A stretch of DNA of 64,000 nucleotides. It comes from Polynucleobacter sp. AP-Melu-500A-A1. Lineage in GTDB: Bacteria; Pseudomonadota; Gammaproteobacteria; Burkholderiales; Burkholderiaceae. Positions 21,625 to 30,761 of the stretch are shown piece by piece; the first letter of the stretch is position 1; each line of letters starts with the position of its first letter. A program made the translations under genes and the position numbers. A model generated the notes under the pieces. That model had not been told where the DNA came from, made no database searches, and saw only the letters and a program-made list of their open reading frames with translations. The stretch is from the NCBI RefSeq assembly GCF_018882125.1, contig NZ_JACVOZ010000002.1:124001-188000 (forward strand), in the 5' to 3' direction.

Positions 21625-21774
21625 TTAATTCCCCTTTTTATCTATTAATTCCAATCATTCGATCTTAACAAAAATGAGCGTTTAGCATTAGATGGCCCTT
21701 AATTAAGTAAAACCATGAACTTTGATAAAAATAAGCTAATATTTGACATAGAAGTTTTAATTACAAAGGAAATA

Positions 21775-22383
21775 ATGAATATCAAACTTACCCCTATCGC
21801 AGTCATTCTTGCGGCTATGCTTACTAGCGCGTCTTTAATGGCTCAAACTAAGCCAACAGATACAAGCGGCACTAAACCTATGGTAATTGATGCAGCGGTT
21901 ACTGATAATCGCTACAAACTATATGAGGGTGAAGTGCTTAAAGTGGATGCTAAAACACGTACCATCACCTTTAAAAATAAAGAGGGTGAATCTAAGTTTG
22001 TTGCGGGGCCTGAAATCACTAATTTTGCTCAAATTAAAAAAGGCGATTTAGTGAATGTGTCCTATGAAACAGCTGTAGCTATTGAATTAATTAAAACTAA
22101 GAGCACTGGAGTCCGTAGCAAGGTCGAAACAAATACTGTTACGAATTCCAAGGCCAATGAAAAGCCAGCGGAAGTCATTGCAAATACGACCACCATCATT
22201 GCAGATATAGTTGGTGTAGACCGTGAAAAGAAATTGGTTTCTGTTAAAGGTCCGAGCAGCAATATCACAACTGTCACTGTTAAGAACCCTGCCCTATTGG
22301 CAGATGTTGCCGTTGGCGAACAGGTGAAAGTAGTTTACTTTGATGCGATGGCTGCATCTATAACAACTCCTAAGAAAAAATAA
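21775..22383 (+). CDS. Exported protein with duplicated beta-rich domain
   Basis: 202 aa with a signal peptide (about 1-23, PIAVILAAMLTSASLMAQ). Two similar segments follow: GEVLKVDAKTRTITFKNKEG... ending KKGDLVNVSYETAVAIEL, and ADIVGVDREKKLVSVKGPSS... ending AVGEQVKVVYFDAMAASI. They share the order of strands, suggesting an internal duplication of an OB-like or CusF-like fold. The start at 21775 has AAGGAA before it; an upstream in-frame ATG at 21715 would bury the signal peptide. Function unknown. A strong terminator follows. Confidence 0.72.
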   Translation: MNIKLTPIAVILAAMLTSASLMAQTKPTDTSGTKPMVIDAAVTDNRYKLYEGEVLKVDAKTRTITFKNKEGESKFVAGPEITNFAQIKKGDLVNVSYETAVAIELIKTKSTGVRSKVETNTVTNSKANEKPAEVIANTTTIIADIVGVDREKKLVSVKGPSSNITTVTVKNPALLADVAVGEQVKVVYFDAMAASITTPKKK

Positions 22384-22412
22384 TCTTCAAGTAGTAAGTC
22401 TTCATTAGTAAT

Positions 22413-22442
22413 AAAGCCCCGTCATTGGGGCTTTATTTTTTT
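22413..22442 (+). terminator. Rho-independent terminator
   Basis: Perfect 8-bp GC-rich stem (AAAGCCCC at 22413-22420, GGGGCTTT at 22427-22434) with a 6-nt loop and a following T run to 22442. It closes the transcript of the exported two-domain protein. Confidence 0.85.
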
Positions 22443-22469
22443 GCGGACATAGCTTGTCGAGATGATGTA

Positions 22470-22694
22470 TTATCCTAACTTTTCTATATCCTTAGTCAGA
22501 ATTCTTCTGATAATTCGGATCGTCACTTCTGGATGCAATCCTATGAGACGCTCTTGAATTAAAGTCGATCTTCTTGTTAATGAGTCAATATGCTCACCGA
22601 CGTGACGATTCGCCTCTAATACATCCTCTAATAGAGTAGTTTCAGCATACCGGCTGCTTTGTTTACTTTGATTTTTTTTGACACTTCCCGACAT
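22470..22694 (-). CDS. Small hypothetical protein, 74 aa
   Basis: Charged, probably helical protein with SSRYAETTLLEDVLEANRHV in its N-terminal half and a basic C-terminus (VTIRIIRRILTKDIEKLG). No family recognised. Its importance is positional: the first 28 codons recur, diverged and truncated, at 28794-28895 in the same orientation, so copies lie on both sides of the lipid-gene block. The second copy makes it likely that this is a genuine gene family. No clear Shine-Dalgarno before ATG 22694. Confidence 0.55.
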   Translation of the reverse strand: MSGSVKKNQSKQSSRYAETTLLEDVLEANRHVGEHIDSLTRRSTLIQERLIGLHPEVTIRIIRRILTKDIEKLG

Positions 22695-22815
22695 TAGAAC
22701 TCAACGCCTTGTTCATTGAATAATTATAGGAAAGAATATACACTTAAAATATTTACTAAATTTATAATTTGAACCTAATCTTTAATTACAACTTTAATCA
22801 AAATCCATTACTTCA

Positions 22816-23181
22816 GTGACTAAATATATACTTATGTTGCAGATTAGTATTTCAGCTCTTTACTATATGTCTGCGCCTTTCTCGCTAAACTTTTTTATCT
22901 ATTTGTTTTGGGGTATCAATTTTATTTCTGCAGTCTATCTATTAGTCAATTCAAATAAATTAGCTATCCCCTTAATTAATCCCCTAAAAAGGGTGAGATT
23001 AATTTTTACAGCCACCCTTATTTTGCTGGAACTGGTGATTAATTTAAATTCAAATTCTTATGCAGCAGATAATTTTCACGGTTTAGTGAGTGATTCGGAG
23101 GTATTGGTTACGGGCATCACTTTAGGTATTCTTTGGTTTTATAGCATTACAGTGCCAGTGACAAAGAAGATAAAAAGTTAA
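22816..23181 (+). CDS. Small hypothetical membrane protein
   Basis: 121-aa protein with about four hydrophobic helices (around 5-25, 27-43, 57-77 and 97-114) and a basic tail. Start is either GTG 22816 or ATG 22834 and neither has a good ribosome site. No family recognised. It overlaps the 3' end of the ketoacyl synthase gene by 4 bp in convergent orientation, and the upstream 120 bp is very AT-rich. As part of the accessory block it may belong to the lipid cassette, but nothing in the sequence shows that. Confidence 0.5.
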   Translation: MTKYILMLQISISALYYMSAPFSLNFFIYLFWGINFISAVYLLVNSNKLAIPLINPLKRVRLIFTATLILLELVINLNSNSYAADNFHGLVSDSEVLVTGITLGILWFYSITVPVTKKIKS

Positions 23182-24434
23182 TTCACATCCCTAGCTAATA
23201 GCAAGGAAACATTGGATCCGCCAAATGCGAATGAATTACTCATTGCATATGGAATGGGTATTTCAATTGAACGTAATGGTAAATAATTTAAATCGCATTC
23301 AGGATCGTTAATTTCTAAAAATGCTGTACCGGGTGCAATATTATTTTGCATCGCCTGTATAGTAATTAGTAGCTCTAACGCTCCAGCAGCACCAAGGGTA
23401 TGTCCATGAACAGCTTTAGTCGAGCTTATGGCTAGTTTTTTTGCCTGATCTAGCCCAAAGGTATTCTTAATAGAAATGGTTTCAGCAATATCCCCAGCTT
23501 GGGTCGCAGTTCCATGGGCGTTTATGTAAACTACCTTTTCAGCACTTAAGCCCGCATCCTTTATAGCCAATTGCATTGCTTTTGATTGTCCCAAAGGATC
23601 AGGCTTTGTGATGTGTAAGGAGTCTGATGTAGCTCCATATCCAATAATTTCAGCAAGTATTATTGCGCCCCTTTTTTTTGCGCTCGATAAAGACTCGAGG
23701 ATGATTGCTGCAGCTCCTTCACCTAATACAAATCCACTGCGATTTTTTGAAAATGGCTTACATGAATGCGCAATATTTTCAGAGTCTGGAATAGCAAGTG
23801 TTTTTAAGGCCTCCCAAGACTTAATAGAAGCAGCAGTTAAGAGGCTTTCTGCCCCACCTGCAATTGCACGATCACAATAACCATGTTTAATACTTCTATA
23901 CGCCTCTCCAATTGCATGAGCAGAGGAAGCACAAGCCGTGGAATAAGTAATTGAGGGGCCTTTAAAAGCGGTATTTAAAGAAATAAGAGCTGTGGCACCA
24001 TTAGCCATTACGCCAATGACTGTAAAAGGCCTAACTCGATCCTTACCATGGATATAAATAGTATCGTATGCATTTTCTACGGTATTGGCTCCGCCAAAAC
24101 CCGTTCCCCAAAATATCCCACTTCGATTTAGCTTTTCTACTCCCAAATCTTTTAAGCCTGAGTGTTCAAGCGCCTCTTTTGCAGCTACCCAAGATATGTG
24201 CGCAACGCGATCGTACATACCTAGCGTAGAGGAATCGAAATAATTTGTTATGTCAGCTGGAACTAGCCCTGCACAGCTTAAATTAACTGGAATAGAAAAA
24301 GAATTAGAAAAACTTGTGATGCCAGAATTACAAAGGGAAGCTTTTTGGAATTGAATATCTGAGCCAAGTCCAAGACAAGATACTGCGCCCAATCCGGTGA
24401 TAACTACCCTTCCTAAATCAGAGTCTCGACCCAT
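23178..24434 (-). CDS. Beta-ketoacyl-ACP synthase (FabF/KAS II-like)
   Basis: Condensing enzyme of 418 aa that extends acyl chains on an acyl carrier protein. The complete catalytic set is present: Cys168 in STACASSAHA, His307 in NAHGTATQAGD, Lys340 and His345 in SSTKAVHGHTLGAAGALE. The usual FabF Thr two residues before the last His is His here (HGH). It starts one base after the stop of the adjacent ACP gene and forms a minus-strand operon with it, unlike the primary fabF, which normally sits in the fab cluster. I infer a second, specialised acyl-chain pathway. Product unknown. Confidence 0.87.
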   Translation of the reverse strand: MGRDSDLGRVVITGLGAVSCLGLGSDIQFQKASLCNSGITSFSNSFSIPVNLSCAGLVPADITNYFDSSTLGMYDRVAHISWVAAKEALEHSGLKDLGVEKLNRSGIFWGTGFGGANTVENAYDTIYIHGKDRVRPFTVIGVMANGATALISLNTAFKGPSITYSTACASSAHAIGEAYRSIKHGYCDRAIAGGAESLLTAASIKSWEALKTLAIPDSENIAHSCKPFSKNRSGFVLGEGAAAIILESLSSAKKRGAIILAEIIGYGATSDSLHITKPDPLGQSKAMQLAIKDAGLSAEKVVYINAHGTATQAGDIAETISIKNTFGLDQAKKLAISSTKAVHGHTLGAAGALELLITIQAMQNNIAPGTAFLEINDPECDLNYLPLRSIEIPIPYAMSNSFAFGGSNVSLLLARDVN

Positions 24435-24435
24435 T

Positions 24436-24663
24436 TTATTTTGCTGAATCGATCAAATCAGCTACATCTTGCAATGTGACGACTTTAAAATCTTCATTTG
24501 GAAGCCGCACTTCAAAATGATCCTCCAGGTCGAATAATAATTCGATTTTTCCAAGCGAATCAACGCCTAAAGATTCCAAAGATGTTTCGGGTCCAATTTC
24601 ATCTATATTTTTATCGAATCGCTCAGCGACTTGCTGAAGCAGGACATTCATAGTGTTTGACAT
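24436..24663 (-). CDS. Acyl carrier protein
   Basis: 75-aa ACP. The phosphopantetheine site is Ser36 in LGVDSLGKIELLFDLEDHF, a standard DSL motif within the acidic helix-2 region. Overall four-helix pattern and length match type II ACPs. It overlaps the preceding DUF4118-like gene's stop by one base (TAATG) and the ketoacyl synthase follows immediately, so it is almost certainly that enzyme's dedicated carrier rather than the housekeeping AcpP. Confidence 0.9.
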   Translation of the reverse strand: MSNTMNVLLQQVAERFDKNIDEIGPETSLESLGVDSLGKIELLFDLEDHFEVRLPNEDFKVVTLQDVADLIDSAK

Positions 24664-25112
24664 TATTTTTCTTTTTTTAGGACATTCATGAGGTCATTAT
24701 CACGGTGCAATAAAATTAAATAACGTGATTCTGAAACAAACAAGAGTAGTTTTGTTTTATACCGCTCACGCTGTAAGTATTCAATTAAAACAATACAAGT
24801 AAAACCTAACAAAAAATTTAATAGCCAAACTTGAAAATCATGGTAACTGAAGATAAATTTTCCAAAGGGTGGGACAAACCAAAAATTAGCGTACAAAGTA
24901 CCCATGATAATGAATACTAAAGCCGGCCAAAAGCCAAAATAGAAGGCTCCAAATATACCCACTAAGTAATAAAACTTGTATGGATTTTCAGAGTAAAAAC
25001 TCTCTCCTGTCATATGCAGAAAAACTGAGAGCAAAGTAAAGCTGATTAGGATGTAGGTAGAGATGGCCCAAATGGGGTATTGACACCATTTTTTTGCATT
25101 TTTTAGGTTCAT
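24663..25112 (-). CDS. DUF4118-like membrane protein
   Basis: 149-aa membrane protein with four helices (about 12-34, 46-64, 65-78 and 92-112). The core GFWPALVFIIMGTLYANFWF then VPPFGKFIFSYHDFQVWLLN resembles the DUF4118 membrane domain of KdpD-type sensor kinases, but no kinase follows; the protein stops soon after the last helix with SESRYLILLHRDNDLMN. It could be an independent membrane-sensing or scaffold protein, or the remnant of a sensor. It is the first gene of the ACP-ketoacyl synthase operon. Confidence 0.65.
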   Translation of the reverse strand: MNLKNAKKWCQYPIWAISTYILISFTLLSVFLHMTGESFYSENPYKFYYLVGIFGAFYFGFWPALVFIIMGTLYANFWFVPPFGKFIFSYHDFQVWLLNFLLGFTCIVLIEYLQRERYKTKLLLFVSESRYLILLHRDNDLMNVLKKEK

Positions 25113-25147
25113 TTTGATTTTACTGTCATAAGGCCTAAAATATCTCT

Positions 25148-26029
25148 ATGAATAGTATGCAGCCTCCTCGGATAGACTCGCCCATTATTGTACTATTTCA
25201 TGGGCTTTCCTCGTCTCCAATCGAATTGTCCTATCTAGGAGACATTTTGCGCAAGAATGGGTTTCGGGTGGAAACCCCCGCTTTAAAGGGTTATGGATTT
25301 GGTGATCACGCTGGCAACTGGAATGAGTGGCTTGCTGAGGCCTGCGCTTTTGTCCAGCAATTACAAAAGACTGAATCTGCCCCAATATCTGTTGGTGGAA
25401 TTTCACTTGGGGCAACTTTGGCACTAGGAGTTGCCTCAACCCTGGATGGAATTAATGCAATCGTATGTCTTTCTACTACATTAAATTACAACGGCTGGGC
25501 TAGTCCTTGGTATCGCATATTCACTCGAGCGGGCATTTGGCTCGGCTTGGGCAAACGATTTAAATATAAAGAACGTGATCCATTTGGTATCAAAAATATC
25601 CAGATTCGAGCCCATATCAAGAAAGCTATGTTGAACTACGATATTTCTGAAGTGGGCGGTTCGTATATGACACTAAACCATATCTATCAAGCAGATAAAT
25701 TATGCTTTAACGTGAAAAAGAACCTACCGAATGTAAATGCTCCTTTGCTAGCGATTCATGCAGTCGATGATGAAATTGCCCATCCAAATAATATCGACCT
25801 TTTAGTAAAGTCAGTGAGTTCGGAAATAAAAAGAGTAATTTATCTTGGTAATAGCTATCACATGATCACCGTTGATAATGAACGTGAAACAGTTGCTTAT
25901 GAAACAGCCAATTTTTTTAAAGAAATGCACGATAGCTCAGTCATTGCAAATATCAAAAATAAAATAATTTCTCCTGAATTACAGCGTTTTCTAAGATCTG
26001 AAAAGACGCACCGAGAACTCAATAATTAA
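25148..26029 (+). CDS. Alpha/beta hydrolase (carboxylesterase/lipase type)
   Basis: 293-aa serine hydrolase resembling Est30 carboxylesterases and monoacylglycerol lipases. HGLSSSPIEL (18-27) forms the oxyanion region, GGISLGAT places the nucleophile at Ser86, Asp207/208 lies in HAVDDEIAHP and His238 in NSYHMITVD, so the triad is complete. No signal peptide. It is transcribed away from the DUF4118-ACP-ketoacyl synthase operon across only 35 bp, suggesting shared control. In this setting it could release or transfer the acyl product; that is inference. Confidence 0.83.
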   Translation: MNSMQPPRIDSPIIVLFHGLSSSPIELSYLGDILRKNGFRVETPALKGYGFGDHAGNWNEWLAEACAFVQQLQKTESAPISVGGISLGATLALGVASTLDGINAIVCLSTTLNYNGWASPWYRIFTRAGIWLGLGKRFKYKERDPFGIKNIQIRAHIKKAMLNYDISEVGGSYMTLNHIYQADKLCFNVKKNLPNVNAPLLAIHAVDDEIAHPNNIDLLVKSVSSEIKRVIYLGNSYHMITVDNERETVAYETANFFKEMHDSSVIANIKNKIISPELQRFLRSEKTHRELNN

Positions 26030-26046
26030 CTTAAGAAAATTGACTT

Positions 26047-26784
26047 GTGTTAATTTCTGAGATTTCTATCTATTTTAGTATTGCTATTGCTGGTATTTTT
26101 ATTGGAATGGAAAAGATTCGCCCTTTATATCCATATAGCTCAGATAGATCATGGCTTCTTAGGCTTCTTATCTTTGGCGGCCTTGGTGTATTTCTTACAA
26201 CGGTAATTGGTATTTATTTGGTTCCGCATTTAGGGCGCATCGCACTTTTCCCCGCTTTAACTCGCTTATTTTTGAATACTCCGGACTGGCTTAATGGCCT
26301 GATTGCTTATGTTTGTATTAGCTTTTTTGTTTATTGGTGGCACCGTTTGCGTCATCATAACAATCTTGTTTGGAGAATTTTTCATCAGATACATCACAGC
26401 ACTCATCGCATAGAAGCCTTAACAGCCATATATGCGCACCCGAGTGATTTTCTAGCAAACGCCTTCATTATTAATGTTGTTTCCTATTCTCTTTTAGGCT
26501 TAGATGTTGAGTCCGCAGCATGGGCATCTCTTTGGGTTGGCATCTTCGAATTCTGGGAGCACACTAATACACCAACACCCCACTGGCTAGGCTACATCAT
26601 CGTTAGACCTGAAATGCATCGTATTCATCATGAGCGGGATCGTCATACTAATAATTATGGTTTACCAATATGGGATATCCTTTTTAGAACTTATGAGAAT
26701 TCATCACGTAAAGTAGAGTGTGGATTTGATCTCGAAGCAGAGAGCAAAGTAAAGCTGATGTTATCTTGCCGTGATATTAGCTGA
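26047..26784 (+). CDS. Fatty acid hydroxylase/sterol desaturase superfamily protein
   Basis: 245-aa integral membrane di-iron oxygenase. All three histidine boxes are present: HRLRH (99-103), HQIHH (113-117) and HRIHH (191-195), with helices before and between them. The superfamily hydroxylates or desaturates membrane lipids, sterols or carotenoids. The start is GTG 26047; the next ATG would remove the first helix. It lies 17 bp after the hydrolase on the same strand. The precise substrate is unknown. Confidence 0.87.
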   Translation: MLISEISIYFSIAIAGIFIGMEKIRPLYPYSSDRSWLLRLLIFGGLGVFLTTVIGIYLVPHLGRIALFPALTRLFLNTPDWLNGLIAYVCISFFVYWWHRLRHHNNLVWRIFHQIHHSTHRIEALTAIYAHPSDFLANAFIINVVSYSLLGLDVESAAWASLWVGIFEFWEHTNTPTPHWLGYIIVRPEMHRIHHERDRHTNNYGLPIWDILFRTYENSSRKVECGFDLEAESKVKLMLSCRDIS

Positions 26785-26800
26785 ACGATTTCTATTCTTA

Positions 26801-27562
26801 ATGCGTAAATTCCTATTTATGCTTTTTTTCTCATATGCTATTTGCTCTTTGGCGCAAGACCAATCCTATGACGATAGTCTTCCAGACCATATAGTCGGTG
26901 ATATAGGCCTGGCTACATACACTTCTAATTTACATTTAGGTACCTATGGAACACAGACATTTTTTGCTCCCTATGCCTTTGCAGACTATAAGCGCGCTTT
27001 CGTGCGCATCGACATGTTTGGTATCAAGACTGCGAAAATTGGTTATGGCTATCTTGAATTTACTGGAAAGGCAATACTTGATAATTATGTTGTAAAGTCA
27101 CCCTACACAACAAATACTATTGTGAGGCGTTATCCTATTCCTATCGGTATTGGTACTTTCCAAGAAACTCCAATTGGCGCTTTTCTAATAAACGCCTACC
27201 ATGACTTTAGTCAATCTAAGAGTGCATTGTATGAATTTTCCTATTTTGGAAAAATTGAAACTATTGAAAAAGTTATTTTATACCCGCAGTTCGGAATTGA
27301 AAAACAGTCAAGCCAATATGCAAATTATTACTATGGCTTAACCAGTCAACAAGCCAATGCTATTGGCTATCAAAGCTACACCGCCCCTGCTACAAACAAT
27401 TTAATGGCAGGCTTCTTGCTAGAAATTCCCGTCATAGATAGCTGGTATATCAATATTTATGGAAAGCGTAAGTGGATGGGAAGCGGAATTAGTAATAGTC
27501 CTGTGATGAACCGATCATTCCAAGATAACCTCTTTATGGCATTGGCTTATCGATTTGAATAA
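26801..27562 (+). CDS. OmpV/MipA-like outer membrane protein
   Basis: 253-aa exported protein with signal peptide (about 1-18, KFLFMLFFSYAICSLAQ). The mature part is rich in alternating aromatic beta-strands and ends SPVMNRSFQDNLFMALAYRF, with a terminal Phe-Glu, like MipA/OmpV family barrels, some of which scaffold murein enzymes. The start at ATG 26801 was preferred to GTG 26771, which overlaps the preceding hydroxylase gene, because it gives a cleaner signal peptide. Following the hydroxylase on the same strand, it could display or export the modified lipid; unproven. Confidence 0.68.
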   Translation: MRKFLFMLFFSYAICSLAQDQSYDDSLPDHIVGDIGLATYTSNLHLGTYGTQTFFAPYAFADYKRAFVRIDMFGIKTAKIGYGYLEFTGKAILDNYVVKSPYTTNTIVRRYPIPIGIGTFQETPIGAFLINAYHDFSQSKSALYEFSYFGKIETIEKVILYPQFGIEKQSSQYANYYYGLTSQQANAIGYQSYTAPATNNLMAGFLLEIPVIDSWYINIYGKRKWMGSGISNSPVMNRSFQDNLFMALAYRFE

Positions 27563-27584
27563 ATGAATATTTTTTAAGTGATCG

Positions 27585-28667
27585 CTAAAGGTTATTCGCC
27601 TTTTTAGATTCCATAAGATATCCAACGCAATATAGGCCAATGCAAATAATCGTTAAGTTAATTATTTTCTCTACATAGGGTAACTGATCTCCGCTATTAA
27701 AAAAAGTGATGGAAAACATTACAGTTAAGGAAAAAATAGCAAGTACAGCATATTTACGATACCCATCTAATAAAGGGTTATAGACTCCATCAGAGGGTTT
27801 AATTTTTTTCACAGGCAGCTCTTTTTGCATCTCTGGATCCCAGGTGGGACTTCTAACCATAATAAAGAGCTTCTTAGTTAATCCTGACGATTTACTCCCC
27901 TTAGCGTAAAGATCAATAAACACTGAGCACAGGGCTAATAGAGGGTTCCAAGAATTTAATGGGATTTTTGTACCATAAATACATTCACCCTCTTCTTTCT
28001 GATAAGTACCAAAAATTCGATCCCAAATAATCAAAACAGCACCAAAATTTTTATCTATGTATTCATTATTAATGGCGTGATGAACGCGATGATTTGAAGG
28101 CGTTGAAAAAAGAAGATCAATACATCCTAATTTACTAATATGTTCAGTATGTATCCAGAATTGATAAATTAATACAAAGGAGCTGATTAGCACAAACTGA
28201 TACGGTGGAATTCCGACGAGCGCCATTATTGCAAAAAAAATGCAGGCGATGATGGGAAAAAAACTTTCTTGTCTTAATGCTGTAGAAAAATTAAATAATT
28301 GACTTTGATGATGGACGGCATGGGAACTCCAAAGTAAGCCCGATTGATGACTTAGCCTATGCAGCCAATAGTCCAAAAAATCGTAAACTAAAAAAATGCA
28401 AATCCAACCGTACCAAGTTTCCCAAAATGGGCTAAAAGTTTTAAAACCAAAATATTGGTATACCAATTCGTAGGCCCCTATTTGAAAAAAAACAAGGCAC
28501 ATCAAAATAGTTTGGCTAAGAATACCTTGACTAAGATTACTGATAGTGTCGTTTAAGCGATAAGTATTTTTATTAATCAAAAATCCATAAATAAATTCTC
28601 CCAACATTAAAATAAGGAAAACTGGGATTGCTAAAAGGACAACCTGATTAAGCAGCTGAAGGTTCAT
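27585..28667 (-). CDS. Alkylglycerol-monooxygenase-type fatty acid hydroxylase superfamily protein
   Basis: 360-aa polytopic di-iron protein. Histidine boxes: HRLSH (103-107), HAVHH (116-120) and HRVHH (193-197). The segments YRLNDTISNLSQGILSQ (36-52) and HHQSQLFNFSTALRQE (119-134) are characteristic of the TMEM195/alkylglycerol-monooxygenase branch, whose animal member cleaves ether lipids. A C-terminal extension (about 285-355) adds two or three helices. It faces the OmpV-like gene convergently. Substrate in bacteria of this branch is not established. Confidence 0.84.
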   Translation of the reverse strand: MNLQLLNQVVLLAIPVFLILMLGEFIYGFLINKNTYRLNDTISNLSQGILSQTILMCLVFFQIGAYELVYQYFGFKTFSPFWETWYGWICIFLVYDFLDYWLHRLSHQSGLLWSSHAVHHQSQLFNFSTALRQESFFPIIACIFFAIMALVGIPPYQFVLISSFVLIYQFWIHTEHISKLGCIDLLFSTPSNHRVHHAINNEYIDKNFGAVLIIWDRIFGTYQKEEGECIYGTKIPLNSWNPLLALCSVFIDLYAKGSKSSGLTKKLFIMVRSPTWDPEMQKELPVKKIKPSDGVYNPLLDGYRKYAVLAIFSLTVMFSITFFNSGDQLPYVEKIINLTIICIGLYCVGYLMESKKANNL

Positions 28668-28789
28668 ATGCTTATTTTAGTGGGGCCAATAAGTTAGTGA
28701 CAGAACCTACTCCATATCGATTTTGACTAGAAGGCTTTCGAGAACTCAATTTTATGTCTCTACCTGATCCTAAAAAATAAGGAATCCAT

Positions 28790-28840
28790 ATGTTCACAAA
28801 CATTCCAATTTTGCCTCAAGCACATCCTCTATCAATGTAG
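28790..28840 (+). other. Possible orphan gene start at a rearrangement junction
   Basis: A 16-codon frame (MFTNIPILPQAHPLSM) with a well-spaced Shine-Dalgarno, AAGGAA, five bases before its ATG. Only the part up to about 28811 is independent; beyond that the DNA is homologous to the antisense small ORF. It looks like the 5' end of an unrelated gene cut off at the junction. I cannot identify the parent gene, and chance is possible. The 120 bp between here and the hydroxylase start shows nothing else recognisable. Confidence 0.25.
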
Positions 28841-28895
28841 TTTCAGCATATTGCCCGCTTTGGCTACTTTTGTTTGCTCTCTTAATTGAAGACAT
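28794..28895 (-). pseudogene. Truncated paralogue of the 22470-22694 ORF
   Basis: From ATG 28895 the frame reads MSSIKRANKSSQSGQYAETT then LIEDVLEAKLECL and stops, 33 codons. Residues 1-28 align with the intact 74-aa protein (identical AETTL and EDVLEA blocks, and clear nucleotide similarity at 22611-22694), but homology ends abruptly at 28812 and the remaining 46 residues are missing. It is therefore a 5' fragment created by a deletion or insertion breakpoint. Confidence 0.7.
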
Positions 28896-28935
28896 GTGGA
28901 TTAGTGTAAACAAACGCGCTTAGGGTGAAAATAGA

Positions 28936-28959
28936 AAAAGCCCGATTTCTCGGGCTTTT
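28936..28959 (-). terminator. Rho-independent terminator of the tRNA cluster
   Basis: Stem AAAAGCCCG / CGGGCTTTT (28936-28944 and 28951-28959) with a 6-nt loop, giving a U-rich tail on the minus strand. It lies 13 bp beyond the 3' end of tRNA-Asp. Confidence 0.8.
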
Positions 28960-28971
28960 AGTCACTTATTC

Positions 28972-29048
28972 TGGCGGAGCGGACGGGACTCGAACCCGCG
29001 ACCCTCGGCGTGACAGGCCGATATTCTAACCAACTGAACTACCGCTCC
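28972..29048 (-). tRNA. tRNA-Asp (GTC)
   Basis: 77-nt cloverleaf with encoded CCA; acceptor stem GGAGCGG/CCGCTCC, TTCGAGTCC T-arm and anticodon GTC (complement at 29012-29014) in loop CTGTCAC. It is the last of three tRNA genes transcribed leftward next to gltX. Confidence 0.96.
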
Positions 29049-29089
29049 AAATTACAACGAGCACTGCTTTTAAAACAAACCAAAAAATC

Positions 29090-29165
29090 TGGCGTCCCCA
29101 GGGGGATTCGAACCCCCGTACTCACCGTGAAAGGGTGATGTCCTAGGCCTCTAGACGATGGGGAC
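29090..29165 (-). tRNA. tRNA-Glu (TTC)
   Basis: 76 nt with encoded CCA; acceptor GTCCCCA pairs with TGGGGAC, and anticodon TTC (complement at 29129-29131) lies in loop CTTTCAC. Sequence is close to the E. coli tRNA-Glu. Adjacent gltX charges it. Confidence 0.96.
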
Positions 29166-29200
29166 CTGGACTGCTGCAAATACCGATTATTTTAAATGCT

Positions 29201-29276
<76 letters not shown>

Positions 29277-29354: not shown

Positions 29355-30761
29355 CTAGTGGAGCACCTTGGAGAGCCTTTTAATTGCCTCATCCTTGCCC
29401 AAAACTACTAAAACAGAATCAATTGCTGGAGTCTGAGTAGTAGCAAATAATGCATAGCGAACGGGCATTGCTAAGGCGGGCATTTTAATTTGATGTTGCG
29501 CTAATACTTGTTTAAAGGCTGCTCCGTAACCCTCTTTACTCGGTTCTGCAATTTCAAGCGCTTTGATTAAATCTTGAAGTGCCGGCATGATTGTCTGAGG
29601 AATATTTTCAGCAATATGCTCAGCACTTGGGGTCGGTGGAGGGAGATAAAATAATTTAGCGCTCTGCGCAATTTCAATCAGGGTATTGGCACGGTCTTTT
29701 AAGAGTCCCACCACTTGAACAAAATTAGGTCCGCTTTCTGTATCAATGCCTAAGGCATGAGCAAAGGGCTTTGTGAGCTTCGCTAAAATCTCAGGATCAG
29801 TTTTTTGAATGTATTGATGATTTAACCAAAGTAATTTTTCTGGATTATGTTGGGCTGGTGAGCGACCTAAGCTTTCAAGATCAAACCAATCAACAAATTG
29901 CTCTTTGGTAAAAACCTCAGCATCACCATGGGACCAACCAAGACGCGCAAGATAGTTCAGAATGGCTTCGGGTAGGTACCCTGCTTTTTGATAATCACGA
30001 ACACTCATAGCCCCATTGCGTTTACTCATTTTTTCACCAGCGTCATTTAAGACTGTTGGCAAATGTGCATAAACTGGGGGTGCGCCTCCCAAAGCCCTCA
30101 TGATATTGATTTGTCTAGGAGTATTATTGACATGGTCATCTCCACGAATTACGTGGGTAATCTTCATATCCAAATCATCGACCACCACGCAGAAGTTATA
30201 AGTGGGCGTCCCATCTGGACGAGCAATGACTAAGTCATCCAATTCTTCATTGTTGATTTCAATAGACCCCTTCACAGCATCATTCCACACTACGGATCCG
30301 CCAATGGGATTTTTAAAGCGTATTACAGGTAGCACATCATTTGGGATCGGAGGAAGGGTCTTTCCTGGCTCCGGTCTCCATAAGCCGTTGTAGCGCGGCT
30401 TCTCTTTATTGGCCATTTGTTGATCACGAAGCTTATTTAACTCTTCTTCGCTCATATAGCATGGGTATGCAAGGCCACTATCAAGCATTTGCTTGATAAC
30501 CTCTCGATAACGATCTATACGTTGCATTTGGTAGATCGGGCCTTCATCTAAATCCAGCCCCAACCATGACATACCTTCAATGATGACGTCTACAGCCTCT
30601 TGAGTAGAGCGCTCAAGATCAGTGTCTTCAATCCTCAGAATAAAATCCCCTTTATTGTGACGAGCAAAAGCCCAGGGATAGAGTGCGCTACGAAGGTTTC
30701 CCAGATGAATAAAGCCAGTGGGACTGGGGGCAAAGCGGGTACGAATTTTCATAAATGACAT
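29355..30761 (-). CDS. gltX: Glutamyl-tRNA synthetase
   Basis: Class I aminoacyl-tRNA synthetase charging tRNA-Glu. The HIGH-type motif appears as [17 protein letters not shown] (about 13-29) and KMSKR as [13 protein letters not shown] (about residue 245). [17 protein letters not shown] and [15 protein letters not shown] are standard. Length 468 aa. Start ATG 30761 or the ATG three codons later (MKIRTRF), both plausible. The tRNA-Ala, Glu and Asp genes lie directly downstream in the same direction and may be read through from it. Confidence 0.96.

What the first reader, a model, noticed from the sequence alone, without database searches (positions are those of the whole stretch)
22470..28895. 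Accessory lipid-tailoring cassette of unknown product
Seen: adjacent genes for a ketoacyl-ACP synthase with complete active site, a dedicated ACP, a DUF4118-like membrane protein, a serine hydrolase, two three-histidine-box membrane oxygenases and an OmpV-like outer-membrane protein. Established: each family handles acyl chains, membrane lipids or the outer membrane. Inference: together they make, oxygenate and perhaps display a special lipid or acyl compound at the envelope. I know no described pathway with exactly this set, which makes it the best candidate for an undescribed system here.
Basis: partly seen in the sequence, partly recalled or inferred. Interest (0 to 1): 0.75.

Follow-up and report, generated by a model that had tools for sequence, protein, structure and literature searches.

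The report
Mobile envelope-lipid gene cassette in Polynucleobacter
A freshwater bacterium carries a tight cluster of eight genes that look able to build and oxidise an acyl chain in the cell envelope; related genomes suggest that the genes travel together and that they are built around an older pair of genes whose joint job I found nowhere described.

Summary
All seven named families are present at 22470-28895, with intact active-site motifs. An eighth gene was missed: a 121-aa membrane protein at 22816-23181 (TM121). The host belongs to Polynucleobacter.

The genes look like one co-inherited unit. TM121-KS-ACP-DUF4118-hydrolase-FAH1 keeps one order in 10 of 10 complete loci. MipA and FAH2 are added in 5 of 11 cassette genomes. 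Trees of KS, FAH1, hydrolase and TM121 contradict the gltX tree in the same direction, which points to joint transfer; DUF4118 and ACP trees do not settle it. dN/dS against the nearest relative is 0.06-0.18.

The unit is modular. The DUF4118-hydrolase pair is older (adjacent in 30 of 30 loci from seven genera and 9 of 9 plasmid loci). FAH1-TM121 recurs in other betaproteobacteria. KS-ACP was found only with this cassette.

Most likely reading: KS and ACP make a special acyl-ACP, FAH1 and FAH2 oxygenate the resulting lipid in the inner membrane, and the hydrolase with DUF4118 (and MipA) edits or monitors it. Substrate, product and 'display' are not shown. By curated cut-offs it is neither OlsE nor housekeeping FabF. 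Partly supported; new variant of a known kind.

The parts
22816..23181 (+). TM121: 121-aa membrane protein of no named family, convergent with KS (4-bp overlap)
   Evidence: No Pfam/NCBIfam match. Next to KS in 10 of 10 complete loci. AF2 model pLDDT 86.5, all helical; no PDB fold match at E<=0.001. Distant copies (28-33% identity) lie one gene away from FAH1 in 7 other betaproteobacterial loci.
23178..24434 (-). KS: FabF-type beta-ketoacyl-ACP synthase, C168-H307-H345, K340
   Evidence: FabF equivalog model 412.7 bits, under its cut-off 493.75; passes the PRK07314 subfamily (395.8 against 387). In 340 genomes of the order the next best hit is 457 bits against 824 for the window (at most 5 candidates per genome were scored).
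24436..24663 (-). Dedicated acyl carrier protein, Ser36 attachment site
   Evidence: PF00550 47.4 bits; under the cut-off of each of the 15 NCBIfam models it hits; 69-84% identical to 8 other cassette ACPs.
24663..25112 (-). DUF4118 membrane protein, partner of the hydrolase
   Evidence: PF13493 41.5 bits. A DUF4118 gene lies beside the hydrolase in 30 of 30 loci returned by a family search and 9 of 9 plasmid loci.
25148..26029 (+). HYD: probably cytosolic alpha/beta serine hydrolase, monoacylglycerol-lipase/Est30-like
   Evidence: PF12146 64 bits. Nearest solved: lipase 7e04, thermostable monoacylglycerol lipases, Est30. GISLG motif, no N-terminal hydrophobic segment in a simple hydropathy scan.
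26047..26784 (+). FAH1: fatty-acid-hydroxylase-superfamily membrane oxygenase
   Evidence: PF04116 93.9 bits. OlsE model 46.8 bits against cut-off 475. H99, H103, H113, H116, H117, H191, H194, H195 invariant in 19 aligned sequences, window included; H104 varies.
26771..27562 (+). MipA/OmpV-family outer-membrane protein, 14-bp overlap with FAH1; optional
   Evidence: PF06629 69.6 bits. Beside FAH1 in 5 of 11 cassette genomes.
27585..28667 (-). FAH2: second fatty-acid-hydroxylase-superfamily protein, with extra C-terminal hydrophobic segments; optional
   Evidence: PF04116 98.8 bits. Strong orthologues (E<=1e-150) in 5 of 151 genomes, each beside the cassette MipA. OlsE model 59.1 bits against 475.
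22470..22694 (-). Small ORF at the left edge; a related stretch lies at the right edge
   Evidence: 73% identity over 93 bp between the two edges. G147 also has a matching ORF on each side. May be an insertion footprint; function unknown.
28778..28870 (.). Right-edge degenerate copy of the small edge repeat
   Evidence: blastn of 22401-22760 against 28701-28960.

Best explanation
The stretch is a horizontally mobile envelope-lipid cassette of eight genes. Its older core is a DUF4118 membrane protein plus a monoacylglycerol-lipase-like hydrolase, in some lineages with a MipA outer-membrane barrel. In some Polynucleobacter a dedicated KS and ACP and a membrane oxygenase with its small membrane partner (FAH1-TM121) were added; FAH2 and an adjacent MipA are present in a subset. 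Proposed working: (1) KS extends an acyl chain on the dedicated ACP, with housekeeping reductases and dehydratases doing any reduction because the cassette holds none; (2) a housekeeping acyltransferase puts the acyl group on a membrane lipid; (3) FAH1 and FAH2 hydroxylate it in the inner membrane; (4) the hydrolase, held or controlled at the membrane by DUF4118, removes or turns over the acyl group; (5) MipA reports or transmits the state of the outer membrane. Shown: gene content, motifs, conserved order, modular history, selection. Well supported but not proven: joint transfer. Inferred: every catalytic step, the lipid nature of the product, and the roles of DUF4118, TM121 and MipA.
For: Families and motifs. 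Same order in 10 of 10 complete loci. Strong KS in 12 of 151 genomes: 11 with the cassette, and G105, where a broken KS lies by gltX. Window+G147 form a group with G001/G049/G061 in outgroup-rooted trees of FAH1 (support 99), HYD (87), KS (86) and TM121 (84), whereas gltX joins window+G147 with the G002 group (98) (trees, supports recounted). Identities of all six core genes go the same way. DUF4118 beside HYD in 30 of 30 family loci and 9 of 9 plasmid loci, with MipA in 8 of those 9. HYD and MipA both present in 50 of 151 genomes, one alone in 7; on a tree of 36 of the 151 genomes, chosen by me, 7 independent pairs, same direction in 5.7 on average, opposite in 0, sign test median p 0.031, range 0.031-0.125. 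dN/dS 0.06-0.18.
Against: No substrate or product evidence of any kind. The site beside gltX is an insertion hotspot that in other genomes holds TolC-like, M48 protease and other genes, so part of the grouping may be a shared landing place. HYD and DUF4118 exist without KS/ACP, so they are not specific to the KS product. The DUF4118 tree does not resolve the grouping and the short ACP tree leans the other way with support 49. Only 8 of 30 family loci show MipA within 1.5 kb of HYD. The FAH1 model was of low confidence (pLDDT 69.5) and matched nothing in the PDB library at E<=0.001. G011 keeps FAH1, TM121, HYD and DUF4118 with a MmgE/PrpD-family gene and no KS/ACP; G108, G073 and G094 hold FAH1 or TM121 apart from a cassette.
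Confidence: 0.45

Rival explanations
1. The cassette makes a small diffusible or pigment-like acyl compound (signal, antibiotic, surfactant) rather than a structural membrane lipid: KS-ACP produce a beta-ketoacyl chain, HYD releases it as a thioesterase/esterase, FAH1/FAH2 oxidise it, MipA lets it out.
For: KS plus ACP with oxygenases and a hydrolase resembles small secondary-metabolite clusters; the best plasmid-borne KS hit (45.6%) sits with an ACP, a KAS III-type protein, a methyltransferase and an FAD enzyme in Caballeronia.
Against: No exporter, further tailoring enzyme or regulator was recognised in the cassette. HYD is found without KS/ACP, so it is not a dedicated release enzyme. The several membrane proteins suggest a membrane-bound substrate.
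Confidence: 0.25
2. FAH1 and FAH2 hydroxylate an ornithine-type amino lipid, with the KS-ACP pair supplying its 3-hydroxy acyl chain to an OlsB-like acyltransferase encoded elsewhere.
For: OlsE is the only NCBIfam family hit by both FAHs. A PF13444 gene is present in 11 of 11 cassette genomes; the window genome's copy scores 180.6 and 172.2 bits with two OlsB models.
Against: OlsE scores are 46.8 and 59.1 against a cut-off of 475; the OlsB scores are under their cut-offs of 350 and 320. PF13444 also matches in 29 of 30 KS-free genomes tried, in one of them (G027) only partly, so there is no co-distribution. The neighbours scanned are LpxH-like and glycosyltransferase-like; no OlsA was seen among the five proteins scanned.
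Confidence: 0.12
3. Hotspot hitch-hiking: an envelope module (DUF4118-HYD, MipA) and unrelated lipid genes share an insertion site downstream of gltX and the tRNA cluster and do not act in one pathway.
For: Empty and differently filled versions of the same site; modules separable in other genomes.
Against: In G001, G049 and G061 the same six genes in the same order lie on another contig than gltX and with neighbours unlike those of the window (draft assemblies). Strong KS was found only with the full set, apart from the broken G105 copy. HYD-FAH1-MipA and KS-ACP-DUF4118 are close-packed and co-oriented.
Confidence: 0.18

Closest known systems
FabF (beta-ketoacyl-ACP synthase II) with housekeeping ACP
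   Same: Same family and catalytic motif; the best solved matches are KAS II/FabF entries
   Different: Below the FabF equivalog cut-off (412.7 against 493.75); sits with its own ACP; strong orthologues in 12 of 151 genus genomes only
OlsE, ornithine-lipid hydroxylase (fatty acid hydroxylase superfamily)
   Same: PF04116 with three histidine boxes; only NCBIfam hit of both FAHs
   Different: 46.8 and 59.1 bits against a cut-off of 475; no Ols gene recognised in the cassette
MipBA of Pseudomonas aeruginosa (MipA barrel plus partner; proposed polymyxin co-sensor with ParRS; PMC10936184, abstract and passages read)
   Same: MipA-family barrel encoded with an envelope partner; the paper notes two-component genes beside most mipA loci it screened and a shorter serine-hydrolase-domain gene beside mipA in Achromobacter
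   Different: Partners here are DUF4118 and a lipase-like hydrolase, not MipB; no two-component gene among the ten ORFs scanned (21715-28667); no regulatory evidence
Monoacylglycerol lipase / carboxylesterase Est30
   Same: Nearest solved hydrolases by profile (E 4.6e-26 to 1e-20), GxSxG motif
   Different: About 290 aa with a C-terminal SPELQRFLR-like tail in 10 of 11 aligned sequences; beside DUF4118 in every locus checked
Dedicated-ACP acyl systems such as AcpXL of rhizobial lipid A (recalled, from no call)
   Same: A special ACP and KS outside the housekeeping set
   Different: No dehydratase, dehydrogenase or lipid A acyltransferase recognised in the cassette

Membership tests
FabF housekeeping KAS II | Score above the FabF equivalog cut-off | tested here: not met
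   412.7 against 493.75 bits
FabF housekeeping KAS II | Cys-His-His active site with the conserved Lys | tested here: met
   C168, H307, H345, K340, invariant in 10 aligned cassette KS
FabF housekeeping KAS II | Present in all genomes of the genus | tested here: not met
   Strong match (E<=1e-130) in 12 of 151
OlsE ornithine-lipid hydroxylase | Score above the OlsE equivalog cut-off | tested here: not met
   FAH1 46.8, FAH2 59.1 against 475
OlsE ornithine-lipid hydroxylase | Histidine boxes of the superfamily | tested here: met
   Both FAHs; for FAH1 eight box histidines invariant in 19 aligned sequences
OlsE ornithine-lipid hydroxylase | Acts on ornithine lipid | not testable with these tools
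   Needs lipid analysis; the OlsB-like gene is widespread in the genus and below cut-off
MipA/OmpV outer-membrane family | PF06629 above gathering score | tested here: met
   69.6 against 24.2
MipA/OmpV outer-membrane family | OmpV equivalog of Vibrio | tested here: not met
   41.1 against 400
MipBA-type sensor | MipB partner in operon and two-component genes beside it | tested here: not met
   None among the ten ORFs scanned, 21715-28667; the rest of the window was not scanned
DUF4118-hydrolase module (unnamed) | DUF4118 gene directly beside the hydrolase | tested here: met
   30 of 30 family loci, window included; 9 of 9 plasmid loci; 12 of 12 genus HYD loci fetched
DUF4118-hydrolase module (unnamed) | MipA beside the hydrolase or co-occurring with it | tested here: inconclusive
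   Adjacent in 8 of 9 plasmid loci; within 1.5 kb in 8 of 30 family loci (four MipA query sequences at E<=1e-3, which may miss divergent ones); co-occurs in 50 of 151 genus genomes

The most novel reading that the evidence does not exclude
DUF4118-hydrolase, with MipA in many lineages, is an undescribed device of Burkholderiaceae that watches or edits acyl groups of the envelope. In some Polynucleobacter it has been joined to a private KS-ACP pair and two membrane oxygenases (with the new membrane family TM121), so that the cell makes and controls an oxygenated acyl lipid not yet known; the whole is passed between lineages as one block.
Probability: 0.3. Interest if true: 0.72.

Novelty: new variant of a known kind. 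Interest (0 to 1): 0.52.

Why it matters
Polynucleobacter includes groups described as frequently very abundant in freshwater plankton (abstract of PMC7522526 as shown in a search listing). A lipid made by a mobile cassette present in 11 of 151 sampled genomes would be a clear genotype-to-envelope trait. The DUF4118-hydrolase pair has a wider reach: it gives two families a testable partnership in at least seven genera of the family. TM121 is a conserved membrane family without a name in Pfam or NCBIfam.

Tried and rejected
TM121 as a known fold: good AF2 model, no PDB match at E<=0.001; left unnamed. FAH1 fold: model only pLDDT 69.5 and no useful match. FAH1 function from distant relatives: neighbours of two relatives at about 40% identity (Pedobacter L076, Flavobacterium L099) were scanned and one more (Mucilaginibacter L072) read by eye; one neighbour is a cNMP-binding protein (L099), another looks like one (L072), and no lipid pathway was seen. 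Carotenoid hydroxylase (CrtZ) was considered from recall and dropped because neither FAH hit such a model. KS relatives outside the genus: 15 genomes of the order gave hits of 436-457 bits, not examined further. FAH2 against PDB sequences gave only chance-looking rows; MipA and the FAH1 profile gave none. An order-wide TM121 search found only the window's own copy among 399 genomes; few genus genomes were in that draw, and the distant copies of L055-L066 were not in the query. Literature: no paper in the library held DUF4118+MipA+hydrolase, Polynucleobacter+'fatty acid hydroxylase', the five lipid terms, DUF4118+esterase, the OlsE terms or the dedicated-ACP terms; Polynucleobacter+'ornithine lipid' gave one paper, not opened; Polynucleobacter+'genomic island'+'fatty acid' gave 13, none of the 12 listed opened. 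The library is open-access PMC only, so absence there is weak evidence.


Full report
What is there. The window lies at G000:C4:124001-188000; genus relatives with the same neighbourhood are named Polynucleobacter. One gene was missed, a 121-aa membrane protein at 22816-23181 (TM121), conserved in every complete cassette locus. Gene order is TM121(+), KS(-), ACP(-), DUF4118(-), hydrolase HYD(+), FAH1(+), MipA(+), FAH2(-), with gaps of -14 to +35 bp. The stretch is GC-poor (37.6% against 42.9 and 44.4% in the flanks) and all eight genes are under purifying selection against G147, dN/dS 0.06-0.18; a closer pair, G019-G148, gives 0.00-0.20 for five genes and 0.63 for TM121 on almost no changes.

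One unit. In 151 genus genomes a strong KS match (E<=1e-130) occurs in 12, a strong FAH1 match (E below 1e-96) in 13, TM121 in 15 and a strong FAH2 match (E below 1e-150) in 5. Eleven genomes carry the cassette. In ten the six genes TM121-KS-ACP-DUF4118-HYD-FAH1 lie in one order. In the eleventh, G123, the pieces seen run to contig ends and HYD was not found. MipA and FAH2 follow FAH1 in five of the eleven. Exceptions: G105 has a broken KS beside gltX; G011 has HYD, DUF4118, a MmgE/PrpD-family gene, FAH1 and TM121 without KS and ACP; G108 has FAH1 and TM121 at separate places; G073 and G094 have TM121 without strong FAH1 or KS.

Joint movement. In gltX the window is 86-88% identical to G002, G026, G019, G070 and G148 and 77% to G001, G049 and G061. 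For all six core genes the order is reversed: 60-80% to the G001 group and 44-71% to the G002 group (the G002 ACP was not in that count). In trees rooted with outgroups, window+G147 group with G001/G049/G061 for FAH1 (99), HYD (87), KS (86) and TM121 (84), whereas gltX groups window+G147 with the G002 group (98). The DUF4118 tree does not resolve the point and the short ACP tree leans the other way with 49 (trees, supports). In G001, G049 and G061 the cassette lies on another contig than gltX, with neighbours unlike those of the window; in G049 and G123 the gltX-side site holds other genes. Genomes such as G024, G013, G052, G144 and G079 have gltX next, or nearly next, to the CusF-like gene, that is, an empty site. 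The simplest account is transfer of the block between Polynucleobacter lineages; an old duplication with differential loss is not excluded.

Modules. (a) DUF4118-HYD is older than the cassette. A search of 160 family genomes found HYD-like matches in 73; 30 of the best-scoring loci were returned and examined (8 of the genus, window included, and 22 of six other genera). All 30 have a DUF4118 gene beside HYD, and 8 show MipA within the 1.5-kb flank. The other places, many of them of a weaker class, were not examined. In nine Caballeronia and Paraburkholderia plasmid loci (two of them one species) DUF4118 precedes HYD in 9 and MipA follows in 8 (Pfam confirms MipA in the three tested). In the genus, HYD is found in 53 of 151 genomes and MipA in 54, both in 50; on a gltX tree of 36 genomes that I chose because loci were at hand, 7 independent pairs give the same direction in 5.7 on average and the opposite in none, median p 0.031, range 0.031-0.125. 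Of 12 HYD loci fetched from genus genomes without KS, 12 have DUF4118 beside HYD, 6 the family of a TolC-like protein, 7 an M48-protease family and 5 MipA nearby (family names from one or two members each). (b) A TM121 relative lies near FAH1 in 7 of the 17 betaproteobacterial loci L055-L071; in L057 the protein between them is a TPR/glycosyltransferase-41 protein. (c) KS-ACP was found only with this cassette in the genomes searched (one search scored at most five candidates per genome).

How it may work. Known for the families (recalled): KS condenses acyl chains on ACP; PF04116 proteins hydroxylate or desaturate lipids in the membrane. HYD is nearest to monoacylglycerol lipases and Est30 among solved proteins. 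Inferred: the KS-ACP pair makes a special acyl-ACP, using housekeeping reductases; FAH1 and FAH2 oxygenate the lipid that receives it; HYD with DUF4118 edits it; MipA senses or passes on envelope state, by analogy with MipBA of P. aeruginosa (PMC10936184, abstract and passages). No step after gene identity is shown. The rival of a diffusible product stands. The ornithine-lipid version is weakened because the OlsB-like family is widespread (11 of 11 cassette genomes, 29 of 30 KS-free ones tried) and the window genome's copy is under the curated OlsB cut-offs.

Membership. The KS is not the housekeeping FabF by cut-off and distribution. The FAHs are not OlsE by its cut-off. The MipA protein is a PF06629 member but not the Vibrio OmpV equivalog. 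DUF4118-HYD meets its defining neighbour feature in every locus checked, and I found no published name for it (in one search only 8 of 29 papers were listed, none of the 8 with DUF4118).

Verdict. 'Together they act as one system' is well supported by order, co-occurrence, selection and the trees of four of six core genes. 'They make, oxygenate and display a special lipid' is a reasonable but unproven reading; 'display' has no support. The parts are known kinds in a combination for which I found no description, with a wider and possibly more useful finding in the DUF4118-hydrolase pair.

Noticed in passing
window 25113-25147: DUF4118 and HYD start codons face each other across 35 bp in the window; from the coordinates used the gap is roughly 26-53 bp in the ten cassette loci, very short for two divergent promoters. 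Start codons were not verified.
   Followed up: partly
window 22470-22694 and 28778-28870: Related small-ORF sequence at both edges of the cassette, same orientation, 73% over 93 bp; G147 has a copy on each side too. Possible insertion or recombination footprint.
   Followed up: partly
window 28972-29276 and gltX 29355-30761: tRNA-Asp/Glu/Ala cluster beside gltX flanks a variable site: in other genomes it is empty or holds HYD-DUF4118 with TolC-like, M48 protease, DUF2147, MipA or CHAD/CYTH genes.
   Followed up: partly
L051:8755-10224 and L050:2777-4252: A MmgE/PrpD-family protein lies beside FAH1 in two cassette variants, once without KS and ACP, once with them.
   Followed up: partly
L055, L057, L059, L063-L066: TM121 relative and FAH1 flank a protein of about 745-749 aa in betaproteobacterial MAGs; in L057 it is a TPR/glycosyltransferase-41 protein.
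   Followed up: partly
L161:8532-13239: Caballeronia sp. SBC2 plasmid: KAS III-type protein, methyltransferase, FAD enzyme, ACP and a KS 45.6% identical to the window's; looks like a small acyl or aromatic metabolite cluster.
   Followed up: no
L186 (G105:C1:833700-846000): Broken KS in two pieces beside gltX in a 1.7-Mb genome: decay of the cassette.
   Followed up: no
L204:6533-9751: Widespread OlsB-like acyltransferase, co-oriented with an LpxH-like phosphatase and a lipid-glycosyltransferase-like protein; possible unrecognised core lipid pathway of the genus.
   Followed up: no
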